Assembly (NCBI GenBank): GCA_028871175.1 | Contig: JAGWNU010000011.1 | Location: forward strand, 1-38,314 | From: Burkholderiaceae bacterium | GTDB taxonomy: Bacteria; Pseudomonadota; Gammaproteobacteria; Burkholderiales; Burkholderiaceae | Direction: 5' to 3' | DNA length: 38,314 nt | In this document: positions 401 through 28,848 of the stretch, piece after piece | Numbering within the stretch: the stretch's first letter is position 1 | Layout of the letters: each line of letters opens with the position of its first letter | Notes under the pieces: generated by a model | What the model was told of the DNA's origin: nothing | The model's input: only the letters and a program-made list of their open reading frames with translations | Databases searched by the model: none | Position numbers and translations under genes: made by a program

Positions 401-1393
401 TCACGCTGCAGGCCCGACCACGCCGAGCTGCCTGCGGTAATCGGTCAGCATGACTTGCTGCGCATTGAGGAGCGCGGAAAGCTTGGCCAACTCTCCAACC
501 CTCTGCTCGCGTTCCGTTCGCGCCGTCGCCAGTTCCTCTGCTTGCGCCTGGACGTTGTCCCGCAGGCCATCACGCTCCGCTTCCATTCGAGCTCGATCGG
601 CGCGCGCCTGGTCGAGTTCGCGTTGGGTGTGTTCGCCGCGCGTCTCCAGTTCGCGAACGCGCTTGGTCGCAGCCCCGGCTTCTGCGATCAGCCTCGCGCC
701 ATCCTTGTTCAACTGCGTGATCTCGCCCTGCTTGACGATCAACGATTGGTTGGCCTGGCGGATTTCAGCCTGCAGTTGTTGGACCTGCTGCTCGTGTCGG
801 CGCGCATCCTGATCCCGCTGCTCCTTGCTGGCATGACGGAAGTGCTCCAGTGCCTGGTGCGCGTGCTGCAGCTTCTCCTCCAGGGAGCGCCGGAAGCTCT
901 CGTGCTCGGTCAGCCGGGCTGTGAGATCTTGGATCTGTTGTGCCGAACGCTCGGCTTCGATCGTGCGCTGCTGCAGCGCCGTCTGCGTATCGCTATGCGC
1001 GGCCCGCATTTCGGCAATGGTGGTGTGAGCCTGCGCCAGCTCGGCGCGAAGCGCGGTGAGATCTGCGGACAGTTTGTCGGCTTCCGCCCGGACTTGCTGG
1101 CGCTGTGCGGTGGCGGCCGTGACCTGCTGGTCGACTACTGCCTGTGCTTCTTCGTGCAGGCGCGCGGCCAGTCTGCCCACCAGATCCAGGATGGCGTCGG
1201 AGGCGCTGCCGACCCGCTTGAACGCCGTGTCTTCCTCTTCTTCCAGTTCCTTCAGATAGCGATGGATGGTCGTTTTCGAGCCCGTGTTGCCCAACGCGAT
1301 ACGTATCGCATCGATCGACGGGTTTTTCCCTTGGGCGAGCAACGAATCGCGCGCACGCTTGATATCGAGACGACTGAGACCGGCACGGGCCAT
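401..1393 (-). CDS. tnpT: TnpT-like cointegrate-resolution accessory protein (KfrA-N/coiled coil)
   Basis: A 330-aa protein. The first ~55 residues form a KfrA-type N-terminal DNA-binding domain (RLDIKRARDSLLAQGKNPS followed by SKTTIHRYLKEL). The rest, from about residue 60 to 315, is one long Ala/Glu/Arg/Gln-rich coiled coil. In Tn4651-type transposons TnpT has about this length and build, binds inverted repeats in the resolution site and helps the recombinase TnpS. The start was set at ATG 1393 (MARAGLSR); an upstream extension to 1441 would run through the promoter. A promoter TTGACG-17 bp-TATACA (1454 to 1426) overlaps an inverted repeat, which suggests autoregulation. Unusually, its usual divergent partner tnpS is 26 kb away. 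A plasmid KfrA protein is the alternative, less likely given the position at a transposon end. Confidence 0.8.
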   Translation of the reverse strand: MARAGLSRLDIKRARDSLLAQGKNPSIDAIRIALGNTGSKTTIHRYLKELEEEEDTAFKRVGSASDAILDLVGRLAARLHEEAQAVVDQQVTAATAQRQQVRAEADKLSADLTALRAELAQAHTTIAEMRAAHSDTQTALQQRTIEAERSAQQIQDLTARLTEHESFRRSLEEKLQHAHQALEHFRHASKEQRDQDARRHEQQVQQLQAEIRQANQSLIVKQGEITQLNKDGARLIAEAGAATKRVRELETRGEHTQRELDQARADRARMEAERDGLRDNVQAQAEELATARTEREQRVGELAKLSALLNAQQVMLTDYRRQLGVVGPAA

Positions 1394-1401
1394 AGCATTA
1401 G

Positions 1402-1454
1402 AATTTGATACTGTATTACGTGCTATGTATATACGTACCAAATTTAAGCGTCAA
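1402..1454 (-). promoter_or_regulatory. tnpT promoter with overlapping inverted repeat (putative TnpT site)
   Basis: On the minus strand -35 TTGACG (1454-1449), 17-bp spacer and -10 TATACA (1431-1426) lie 33 bp ahead of the tnpT ATG. The plus strand shows AATTTGATAC (1402-1411) facing GTACCAAATT (1435-1444), arms that pair at 9 of 10 positions. A protein bound here would cover the -10 element, so autoregulation by TnpT is likely. This is inference from layout. Confidence 0.6.
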
Positions 1455-1476
1455 GGTGGCTGCCTGGAGACCATTT

Positions 1477-1511
1477 CTCCCACGCGATAATGGCGCGTTA
1501 TCACGTGTGAG
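1477..1511. other. Candidate recombination core (rst-like) for TnpS
   Basis: Two 14-bp arms, CTCCCACGCGATAA and TTATCACGTGTGAG, pair at 12 of 14 positions around a 7-bp centre (TGGCGCG). Short inverted arms around a 6-8 bp spacer are the usual form of a tyrosine-recombinase core site. It lies 84 bp ahead of tnpT, next to the putative TnpT-binding repeat, as expected for a resolution site of the Tn4651 group. Confidence 0.55.
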
Positions 1512-1739
1512 TGCCCAACACAGGGTCTGCCGCCCTGGTCTTCAGTACGTATGCCCCCAAAGCGGCATGTTTGCAGCGCGCTGGTCAATTCCGATCCGGT
1601 TGCAACATCCTCGGTCGGTACGAAGTCCTTGACCTTCCCCTCATGGGAATGTCGATACTTGCGACTAACAGGGAGGCCCCTGCAATTGGCCGGGGCCGGC
1701 CGCAAGACCTCAGGACATCCTTCCGCCAAGAGTTGCACC

Positions 1740-2069
1740 ATGAAACGCTTCCAGCCATCTCTGCACGAGGAGGTGTTCCGCATTTTTGCGAGAGCCTGCA
1801 GGGAGGCGGAATTCGGGGTGGCAGACCACCTGCTCGGCGCCATCGAGTTCATCGCCCAACAAGAGGGCCACCCGGAACAGAGCGACTTTGCCTACTTGCT
1901 GGTGGCAGATTCCTGCGTCTATGCCAGCAAACAGCTACCCGGCTACGCAGCGGGACACTCCAGGCCGAAGCGACCGACCAAGAGACTAGGTACCTGCTCA
2001 GTCCCGACCGCCACCGGTGAAAAGCTGCCCCACCACCAACGACGTAGAACCCGCTGTGGCGCCTGCTGA
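1740..2069 (+). CDS. Unrecognised short protein, C-terminal half doubtful
   Basis: A 109-residue frame from ATG 1740. Residues 1-70 look protein-like and helical (HEEVFRIFARACREAEFGVA, then an Ala/Leu-rich helix and a Cys), while the last ~38 residues are Arg/Pro/Thr-rich and look like out-of-frame sequence, so the gene may be frameshifted or truncated near position 1950. The stop overlaps the start of the next frame (TGATG). No ribosome site is obvious. It sits in a decayed zone between the resolution site and the lead operon. I do not recognise a family. Confidence 0.4.
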   Translation: MKRFQPSLHEEVFRIFARACREAEFGVADHLLGAIEFIAQQEGHPEQSDFAYLLVADSCVYASKQLPGYAAGHSRPKRPTKRLGTCSVPTATGEKLPHHQRRRTRCGAC

Positions 2070-27422: not shown

Positions 27423-27757
27423 AATTCGTTTCCGCTGTTGTATTCGCCCTGACGCTGGCGTCAGCACCGGCCGCCTTTGCTGCCACGCCGATGGAGGGTA
27501 TGGACATGAAGCCGGCTGGCCAAGCCACGCAGGCGCCCAAGCCCGTGGCAGCAGAGATTCGGAAGGTTTATCCCGACACCGGCAAGGTCACACTCAAGCA
27601 TGGCGCCATCGACAATCTCGGCATGGGCGCGATGACGATGACATTTGCGGTCAAGGACAAGGCGTCGCTGGCCAAATTTAAGGAGGGCGATGCCGTCTTG
27701 GCCACATTCGACATGGTGGATGGTCAGCCGACTGTGACGGAGATGCATCGCCGGTAG
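27419..27757 (+). CDS. cusF: CusF-like periplasmic copper/silver chaperone
   Basis: A 112-aa exported protein: signal peptide (FALTLASAPAAFA), a Met-rich linker (MEGMDMKP) and an OB-fold CusF domain with KHGAIDNLGMGAMTMTF. His and the MTM methionines match the CusF metal ligands, but the Trp that caps Cu(I) in E. coli CusF is Met here. It closes the cusDCBAF-like operon and overlaps cusA by four bases. It likely ferries Cu(I)/Ag(I) to the CusB/CusA complex. Confidence 0.92.
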   Translation: MKFVSAVVFALTLASAPAAFAATPMEGMDMKPAGQATQAPKPVAAEIRKVYPDTGKVTLKHGAIDNLGMGAMTMTFAVKDKASLAKFKEGDAVLATFDMVDGQPTVTEMHRR

Positions 27758-27791
27758 TGCGTGTGGGGCAGCGCGTCTTCGCCATAAAGTC

Positions 27792-27817
27792 ATCGGGATC
27801 GGCTTGACCGACCCGAT
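27792..27817. repeat. Inverted repeat after cusF
   Basis: ATCGGGATCGG and CCGACCCGAT face each other over five bases, 34 bp after the cusF stop codon. No T-run follows, so termination is doubtful; it could be a protein-binding site ahead of tnpS. Confidence 0.45.
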
Positions 27818-27856
27818 AGACAAGGCGCGGTCGCGCCCTACAATGTGGGCGCGACC
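27817..27856 (+). promoter_or_regulatory. tnpS promoter with perfect palindrome over the -10
   Basis: -35 TAGACA (27817-27822), 16-bp spacer and -10 TACAAT (27839-27844) lie 42 bp ahead of tnpS. The 10-bp arms GGTCGCGCCC (27829-27838) and GGGCGCGACC (27847-27856) pair perfectly around the 8-bp TACAATGT. This fits an operator that shuts tnpS off, or a second recombinase core site. Confidence 0.6.
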
Positions 27857-27885
27857 ATCTGCATTTCGCGCCCACTCACCCGAAC

Positions 27886-28848
27886 ATGGCTGACGTTCAG
27901 CGCTATCTCGAGGCCGCCACCCGCGATCACACGCGGCGCAGCTACCAATCCGCCATCCGCCATTTCGAAAGGGAATGGGGCGGCTTCCTGCCGGCCAGCG
28001 CCGACAGCGTTGCACGCTATTTGGCCGAGCACGCGCAGGCCCTTTCCATCAACACGCTGCGCCAACGGCTGGCAGCGATCGCGCAATGGCACGTGTCGCA
28101 GGGCTTTCCCGACCCCACCCGGGCGCCGCATGTCCGCAAGGTCCTCAAGGGCATCCAGGCCGTGCACCCCGCGCATGAGCGGCGCGCCAAACCGTTGCAG
28201 CTCGCTCAACTGGAGCACCTAGTCGCCTGGCTGGATGCGCAAATTGCGGCCGCCTCGGCCGCGAGTAACGCTCATCAACTACAGGTGCATACCCGCAACA
28301 AGGCGCTGGCACTGATCGGCTTCTGGCGCGGTTTCCGGTCGGACGAATTGAGTCGCCTGCGGATTGAGCACATCACGGTCGCGCCCGGTCAGGGCATGAC
28401 GATCTTTCTGCCTCGCACCAAGACAGACCGCAACCATGTCGGCACGACCCACAAGGCGCCAGCCTTGTCGCGCTTGTGCCCGGTCGCCGCCTACGAGGCC
28501 TGGTTGGCAACGTCAGGCCTGGCTGATGGTCCCGTGTTTCGCCGCATTGACCGATGGGGGCGGATAGCCGGTGCAGGGCTGCAGGCCAGCAGCATCGTGC
28601 CTTTACTGCGTTCGCTGTTTCGTGACGCAGGGCTGCCGCAGGCGGACAGCTATAGCAGCCATTCGCTGCGGCGAGGCTTTGCTACTTGGGCCAATGCGAA
28701 CCAGTGGGATCTCAAGATGCTGATGGAATACGTCGGCTGGAAGGACGTACGCTCGGCCATGCGCTATATCGACGCGGCCGACCCATTTGCCCAGCATCGG
28801 ATCGAAACGGCGCTGTCGGTCGCACCCCGGCCGGGCATTGCAGGCTGA
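27886..28848 (+). CDS. tnpS: TnpS-like tyrosine recombinase
   Basis: A 320-aa tyrosine recombinase. The N-terminal SAM-like core-binding domain (RYLEAATRDHTRRSYQSAIR ... INTLRQRLAAIAQWH) precedes a catalytic domain with first Arg in FWRGFRSDELSRL (~148), HSLRRGFATW (His/Arg, ~259-262), GW in place of the second His, and nucleophile Tyr in AMRYID (~293). Length and type match TnpS of Tn4651-type elements, which resolves cointegrates together with TnpT. It converges with tnpA. Its partner gene and likely target site are at the other end of the cargo. An ordinary phage-type integrase is the alternative. Confidence 0.85.
   Translation: MADVQRYLEAATRDHTRRSYQSAIRHFEREWGGFLPASADSVARYLAEHAQALSINTLRQRLAAIAQWHVSQGFPDPTRAPHVRKVLKGIQAVHPAHERRAKPLQLAQLEHLVAWLDAQIAAASAASNAHQLQVHTRNKALALIGFWRGFRSDELSRLRIEHITVAPGQGMTIFLPRTKTDRNHVGTTHKAPALSRLCPVAAYEAWLATSGLADGPVFRRIDRWGRIAGAGLQASSIVPLLRSLFRDAGLPQADSYSSHSLRRGFATWANANQWDLKMLMEYVGWKDVRSAMRYIDAADPFAQHRIETALSVAPRPGIAG

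What the first reader, a model, noticed from the sequence alone, without database searches (positions are those of the whole stretch)
401..28848. tnpT and its site are split from tnpS by all the resistance cargo
In Tn4651-type elements tnpS and tnpT are divergent neighbours with the resolution site between them. Here they keep divergent orientation but are 26 kb apart, with the candidate site left beside tnpT. The cargo thus appears to have entered between the site and tnpS, so tnpS needed its own promoter. This could be a distinct way for a Tn3 element to acquire cargo.
Basis: partly seen in the sequence, partly recalled or inferred. Interest (0 to 1): 0.75.

Follow-up and report, generated by a model that had tools for sequence, protein, structure and literature searches.

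The report
Transposon whose resolution site trades cargo
A bacterial jumping element keeps its metal-resistance genes between two halves of its own resolution system, and close relatives have traded whole arms of DNA, cargo included, by recombining at or beside that site.

Summary
The split is real. A ~32 kb Tn3-family transposon has tnpT and a complete-looking resolution site (rst, ~1406-1548) at its left end, tnpS-tnpA at its right end and ~26 kb of metal-resistance cargo between. The KfrA-like gene is a TnpT (46% to Tn4651 TnpT). The layout is not new: it recurs in relatives, a quick TnpS tree forces at least six split/compact changes, and PMC4619425 (2015; passages) reports passengers between tnpS and tnpT. 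New, as far as my paper searches go: in 7 of 66 Ralstonia pairs a long exact match through the rst core stops in the core or within nine bases of it, with identical DNA on one side and different DNA on the other. Two Pseudomonas comparisons break at core base 10-11. So recombination at rst, most likely by TnpS/TnpT, swaps a left arm (flank, repeat, tnpT) against a cargo-bearing right arm. The window's own element shows the slot but no recent swap. How genes first entered the slot is unknown. TnpA is only ~20% identical to Tn4651 TnpA.

The parts
2..39 (+). left terminal inverted repeat (the window is the start of contig C33)
   Evidence: 37 of 38 identical to 32045-32008 reversed, by eye; window 1-119 matches L003 4229-4347; for the contig
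401..1393 (-). tnpT (KfrA_N domain); start taken at ATG 1393
   Evidence: Pfam KfrA_N 3.5e-24; blastp to Tn4651 TnpT 46% over 239 aa, 5.6e-43; Tn4651 TnpT is KfrA_N too
1406..1443 (.). rst, tnpT-proximal palindromic region (TnpT binding there is recalled from Tn4651 work and stated for TnXocp1 in PMC4619425)
   Evidence: conserved in the alignment of 33 tnpT loci; passage
1486..1510 (.). rst core, GATAATGGCGCGTTATCACGTGTGA; exchange point in relatives
1545..1548 (.). rst, tnpS-proximal GTAC box, 57-59 nt from core start in relatives
   Evidence: 23 of 25 distinct sites; read off the 8 Pseudomonas rows (5 distinct)
1550..27760 (.). cargo slot: BacA, signal peptidase II, P-type ATPase, CadR, Ftr1-type, MFS, two-component pair, two RND efflux sets, CusF-like
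   Evidence: the second RND set, the P-type ATPase and the CusF-like gene by DNA match only
27817..27844 (+). predicted tnpS promoter TAGACA-16-TACAAT; its -10 overlaps a 9-bp inverted repeat 27830-27838 / 27847-27855 (by eye)
   Evidence: sequence
27886..28848 (+). tnpS, tyrosine recombinase
   Evidence: Pfam Phage_integrase 3.4e-13; 58% to Tn4651 TnpS, 3e-130
28948..31881 (-). tnpA, Tn3-family transposase
   Evidence: NCBIfam transpos_Tn3 749 bits, cut-off 500
32008..32045 (-). right terminal inverted repeat

Best explanation
The window holds a complete-looking Tn3-family transposon with a two-arm build. The left arm is the terminal repeat, tnpT and the tnpT half of rst. The right arm is the other half of rst, the cargo, tnpS, tnpA and the other terminal repeat. 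The whole rst (palindrome, core, GTAC box) stays together beside tnpT, so TnpS made 26 kb away should still resolve cointegrates in trans (inferred). Because the cargo lies beyond the crossover point, TnpS/TnpT recombination between rst sites of two different elements in one cell swaps right arms, cargo included. Shown by sequence: the slot, its recurrence, and identity breaks at the core in Ralstonia and Pseudomonas relatives. Inferred: that TnpS/TnpT made those breaks, that the window's site works, that its tnpS uses the predicted promoter. Not known: how genes first entered the slot.
For: Compact relative that matches both ends of the split. Core 91-99 bp upstream of the position that aligns with the tnpT ATG in 30 of 31 loci with a core (33 examined, copies included). 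A search of 16 genus genomes (up to 2 mismatches) found 15 cores in 9; 13 lie beside a tnpT match, the two of G158 lie near contig ends with no tnpT match. Arm exchange: G144:C4 and G121:C31 100.0% over 15.9 kb up to core base 25, then unrelated at first; G129:C3 and G144:C3 100.0% over 17.9 kb up to core base 25, then unrelated; G129:C3 and G144:C2 99.9% over 1.4 kb up to the core. Cargo tracts of ~13.6 kb (G121:C31 and G144:C3) and ~30.6 kb (G129:C3 and G144:C4) run from the core at near 100% (inferred from 98.9% and 99.3% over alignments that include the diverged tnpT side), while left sides are 87% and 79%. Of 66 pairs of 12 Ralstonia loci, 7 have an exact run over 150 bases through the core; inner ends at core bases -8, -1, -1, -1 and 18, 25, 25; the other 59 have none. 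Pseudomonas: L136/L138 match exactly from core base 10 to 430 and at 100% (rounded) to 1050, against 30% ungapped in the 60 bases before the core; L148/L155 start at base 11.
Against: No recombination was assayed. The window's arms are both ~80-88% from their nearest relatives, so no recent swap is seen in it. Its core departs from the genus pattern at two bases. Swapped tracts can end inside the cargo at other breaks (X, Y), and G144:C4 and G121:C31 agree again beyond X, so not every change is a clean two-arm swap. L148/L155 fall to 86% over 1050 bases, and L136/L138 tnpT sides are still 75% alike over 600 aligned bases. A break between tnpS and tnpA also occurs, so rst is not the only exchange point. 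L028, a split element, lacks the GTAC box.
Confidence: 0.75

Rival explanations
1. The arm swaps are ordinary homologous recombination between elements, and the core is only the last shared stretch.
For: Where cargo is unrelated, homology ends near the core, so breaks cannot lie further right.
Against: Left arms align for about 1 kb, and among nine distinct left types the longest exact matches (up to 78 bp) lie inside or near tnpT rather than at the core; yet the 7 long runs all end in the core or within nine bases of it. In Pseudomonas both sides are homologous genes and the break is still at core base 10-11. I looked for breaks at the core first, which is an ascertainment bias.
Confidence: 0.1
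2. The split is one ancestral layout inherited by a large clade; compact forms are cargo losses.
For: Splits are common in Ralstonia and Burkholderia relatives, and the label is clustered (9 changes; shuffles 18.3, none of 500 as low).
Against: At least 6 changes are forced by starred branches of the quick tree, and the DNA before tnpS is of at least seven kinds among the Ralstonia-Cupriavidus loci printed (by eye). Direction cannot be told from the tree. Not exclusive with the best explanation.
Confidence: 0.3
3. The cargo entered this slot in a single insertion peculiar to this element.
For: Compact C. taiwanensis relative.
Against: G024 and G144:C4 carry the same blocks (window 2887-10028 and 21565-27737 at 85-94%) in another order in the same slot.
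Confidence: 0.05
4. The junctions are assembly errors at a short repeat.
For: G121 is a draft of about 40 contigs and several Pseudomonas records are drafts; two G158 contigs end ~33 bp from a core.
Against: G129 (3 contigs), G144 (4) and G024 (3) are assemblies of few contigs and hold 6 of the 7 loci in the runs (L011, L014, L015, L016, L046, L047; L013 is the draft). Read types are not known to me.
Confidence: 0.03

Closest known systems
TnXocp1 / TnXop1 / TnSml1 / TnPsd1 (PMC4619425, 2015; passages)
   Same: tnpA-tnpS linked, metal-resistance passengers between tnpS and tnpT, rst kept, region called highly variable
   Different: No crossover mapping at the rst core and no arm exchange in the passages that I saw
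Tn4651 of pWW0
   Same: TnpS 58%, TnpT 46%, same rst plan including the GTAC box
   Different: tnpS and tnpT 180 bp apart, cargo between tnpS and tnpA; TnpA only ~20% identical
Resolvase/res shuffling of transposon and plasmid DNA (Kholodii 2001, title seen in reference lists only; PMC9501444, passages: exchange between plasmids at res sites)
   Same: Works like it: a cointegrate resolution site serves to exchange DNA between replicons
   Different: Resolvase/res there; tyrosine recombinase TnpS plus TnpT at rst here, with the cargo slot on the tnpS side of the site
Toxin-antitoxin pairs beside res (PMC7157771, passages)
   Same: Genes carried close to the resolution site
   Different: Small gene pairs there; the paper says other passengers are generally away from the resolution and transposition genes

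Membership tests
Tn3 family | Tn3-type DDE transposase | tested here: met
   NCBIfam transpos_Tn3 749 bits, cut-off 500; Tn4430 TnpA structure matched at 1.7e-71
Tn3 family | ~38-bp terminal inverted repeats | tested here: met
   37 of 38 (by eye)
Tn3 family | 5-bp target duplication | not testable with these tools
   the window is the start of its contig, at the left repeat
TnpS/TnpT/rst resolution system | TnpS homologue | tested here: met
   58% to Tn4651 TnpS
TnpS/TnpT/rst resolution system | TnpT homologue | tested here: met
   46% over 239 aa, KfrA_N in both
TnpS/TnpT/rst resolution system | rst site between divergent, adjacent tnpS and tnpT | tested here: not met
   site present beside tnpT, genes divergent, but 26 kb of cargo between site and tnpS
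TnpS/TnpT/rst resolution system | cointegrate resolution at rst | not testable with these tools
   needs an assay
Tn4651 subgroup (by transposase) | TnpA close to Tn4651 TnpA | tested here: not met
   20% by alignment, 21% by blastp; Thauera pTha01 TnpA as control is 64%

The most novel reading that the evidence does not exclude
rst is a standing cargo-exchange port: TnpS/TnpT routinely recombine rst sites of different transposons in one cell, and the slot between rst and tnpS was favoured because cargo there rides on the exchanged arm, so one family of resolvases trades whole resistance arms between plasmids.
Probability: 0.35. Interest if true: 0.72.

Novelty: new variant of a known kind. 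Interest (0 to 1): 0.57.

Why it matters
It gives natural, near base-level crossover footprints for a little-studied Tn3-family resolution system and ties them to how multi-gene metal-resistance cargo is redistributed among plasmids. It makes a testable prediction: two rst copies on separate replicons should exchange arms when TnpS and TnpT are present.

Tried and rejected
A second rst core beside tnpS, as integration of a circle would leave: the core pattern (up to 2 mismatches) found none in the 16 genus genomes beyond those beside tnpT and the two G158 contig ends, and one core only in the window; a more diverged core would be missed. Plasmid-collection search for the same arms: one weak match; the C. 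taiwanensis left arm at 82% and one weak match; near records may be left out there. RNA families: no match at gathering scores. GTAC box: I first asked for it 66-90 nt from the core start and got 0 of 25; the printed positions show 57-59 in 23 of 25, so that offset was chosen after seeing the data. The 8 Pseudomonas rows (5 distinct, none among the 25) carry it at the same place, read off by eye; control cargo windows of 25 start positions hold GTAC in 108 of 2121. Breaks X (G121:C31 ~40975) and Y (G121:C38 ~73500): at Y, G129 carries what looks by eye like the end of another Tn3-type element; X is unexplained.
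Full report
What is there. The window is the start of contig C33 of a 4.06 Mb draft of 372 contigs. From base 2 to 32045 lies a Tn3-family transposon: terminal repeat, tnpT (-), rst, metal-resistance cargo, tnpS (+), tnpA (-), terminal repeat. The KfrA-like protein is a TnpT: 46% identity over 239 residues to the Tn4651 protein encoded beside TnpS on pWW0, and both carry KfrA_N. Starting tnpT at the ATG at 1393 lines it up with Tn4651 TnpT; the upstream TTG lies in the palindromic region.

The split against a compact relative. C. taiwanensis NZ_CP016951 carries the same element in about 6.0 kb. Window 1-119, 400-1516, 27892-28815 and 28960-32049 match it at 75-82% DNA identity, and the cargo does not. 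So the cargo sits in a slot that starts just right of the rst core and ends at the tnpS start.

The site stays together. Of 33 tnpT loci (two elements are present in more than one copy), 28 have the strict core motif and 31 the relaxed one. The core lies 91-99 bp upstream of the position that aligns with the tnpT ATG in 30 of those 31; the exception, L022, lacks the palindromic region in the alignment. A GTAC box follows 57-59 nt after the core start in 23 of 25 distinct sites, Tn4651 included, and in the eight Pseudomonas rows. The two sites without it are L028 (a split element) and L049. From palindrome to box this is about 140 bp, close to the 136 bp that I recall as the functional rst of Tn4651 (Yano and co-workers 2013; recalled, not read). 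In the split elements that have the box it is on the tnpT side of the cargo.

How common the split is. Searches covered 398 genomes of the family (5 candidates scored per genome, so matches can be missed): 29 have a TnpS and 32 a TnpT at the limits used. Pairing same-contig divergent matches by hand, the 8 pairs that I could place in the window's genus are all split: G000 26 kb, G024 34 kb, G087 3.5 kb, G105:C26 17 kb, G121:C31 34 kb, G121:C38 16.5 kb, G144:C2 73 kb, G144:C4 75 kb. Not placed: G129 (several candidates), G105:C10, G144:C3 and G137 (no partner on the contig), G058 and G158 (no tnpT match). Cupriavidus (code g3) elements with tnpT at 78-79% are compact (about 430 bp), but g3 genome G350 is split by 12 kb. 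In 80 named loci, tnpT was found upstream of tnpS in 48: 39 at 121-432 bp and 9 at 1.2-9.3 kb, measured to the start of the 346-residue reading. The other 32 had no tnpT in the stretch held, 26 of them with at least 9.8 kb to look in, so they may be split further or have lost tnpT. On a quick TnpS tree of 62 rows (40 compact, 22 split; rows without a known state and near-copies were dropped first) the label changes at least 9 times, at least 6 forced by starred branches, against 18.3-18.4 in shuffles. The tree has long branches and no inferred root, so gain cannot be told from loss.

In print. [quoted passage not shown] A table passage of PMC3056050 lists tnpT and tnpS of P. putida strains, some with adjacent gene numbers and some 8 to 19 apart. 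The layout is therefore known. [quoted passage not shown]

The new part: arms swap at the core. Labelling what lies left of the core and right of it, one search shows right type R1 behind three different left sides (G024, G121:C31, G144:C3), R2 behind three (G144:C4; G129:C3 and G121:C38, which share one; G158:C81, of which only a few tens of bases are seen) and R3 behind two (window, G129:C3). Conversely one left side each is joined to R1 and R2, to R1 and R3, and to R2 and R4. In the swapped pairs identity is 100% for hundreds to thousands of bases on one side, and 79-88% or nothing on the other; G024 R1 agrees exactly for ~670 bases and then at 90-100%. Of all 66 pairs of 12 Ralstonia loci, 7 have an exact run of more than 150 bases through the core; their inner ends lie at core bases -8, -1, -1, -1 (left ends) and 18, 25, 25 (right ends), and the other 59 pairs have no such run. 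Nine distinct left types share no exact stretch longer than 78 bases in the 1100 bases left of the core, so no such long-run switch lies inside tnpT among them. At least two reciprocal events (four if each product counts singly) are needed in Ralstonia, by my own count. The window and G129:C3 share R3 at 87% over 300 bases and their left sides at 81%, which is what common descent would give: no recent swap is seen in the window itself.

Replication in another clade. Among compact Pseudomonas elements, L136 and L138 match exactly from core base 10 to 430 and at 100% (rounded) to 1050, while 30% of the 60 bases before the core agree ungapped and 75% of 600 aligned bases. L148 and L155 match from base 11 (100% rounded over 300 bases, exact to base 46, 86% over 1050), against 38% before the core. 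L148 and L157, 97% alike in the 60 bases before the core, share core bases 10-17 and are 84% alike over the 300 bases after it. These are consistent with crossovers around core bases 10-18, near the right edge of the core spacer.

What this says about mechanism. Site-specific recombination by TnpS with TnpT between rst sites of different elements is the simplest reading. Homologous recombination would be expected at the longer identical stretches in tnpT. Three of the genomes have only 3-4 contigs, so misassembly at a 25-base repeat is unlikely. The DNA before tnpS differs between elements (an Ftr1-type gene, a CusF-like gene, a histidine-rich gene and others; where a gene end is seen it lies 6 to ~130 bases before tnpS; by eye), so genes also enter or leave at the tnpS side by some other route. 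Swapped tracts can end inside the cargo (X, Y), and G144:C4 and G121:C31 are again identical for 32 kb beyond X. Paper searches for rst-mediated exchange showed none in their listings; subscription papers are mostly not in the library.

tnpS expression. A sigma70-like match lies at 27817-27844, its -10 overlapping a perfect 9-base inverted repeat (sequence). Compact C. taiwanensis and several split elements have a GACAAT motif near tnpS (by eye), so a tnpS-proximal promoter may predate the split. This is unproven.

Family. The resolution system is that of Tn4651, but the transposase is not: 20% against 64% for the Thauera control. TnpS/TnpT thus serve at least two distant TnpA lineages.

Noticed in passing
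window 85-125: A second copy of the terminal-repeat sequence lies ~85 bp inside the left end; L017 has the same spacing, and L011 has two copies 39 bp apart.
   Followed up: partly
window ~28848-28948: Against G129:C3 263451-267610 (L038), identity jumps from 79-91% in tnpS to 97-100% in tnpA: a second module break between the convergent genes.
   Followed up: partly
window 27830-27855: Perfect 9-bp inverted repeat around the predicted tnpS -10; L033 has a near-identical one (by eye); perhaps an operator.
   Followed up: no
window 2887-10028 and 21565-27737: These two resistance blocks occur in the opposite order in G024, where the first one lies next to tnpS.
   Followed up: partly
L088 (G158:C81) 18408-18465 and G158:C319 34-58: Two contigs of a metagenome-assembled genome end within ~35 bp of an rst core, as if several arm combinations coexist there.
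   Followed up: no
L022 (G091:C65): tnpT in two pieces with the palindromic part of rst missing; its left side is nearest L030 and L023 (~95%) but its right side nearest L029 and L005 (84%, 83%), an older candidate swap.
   Followed up: no
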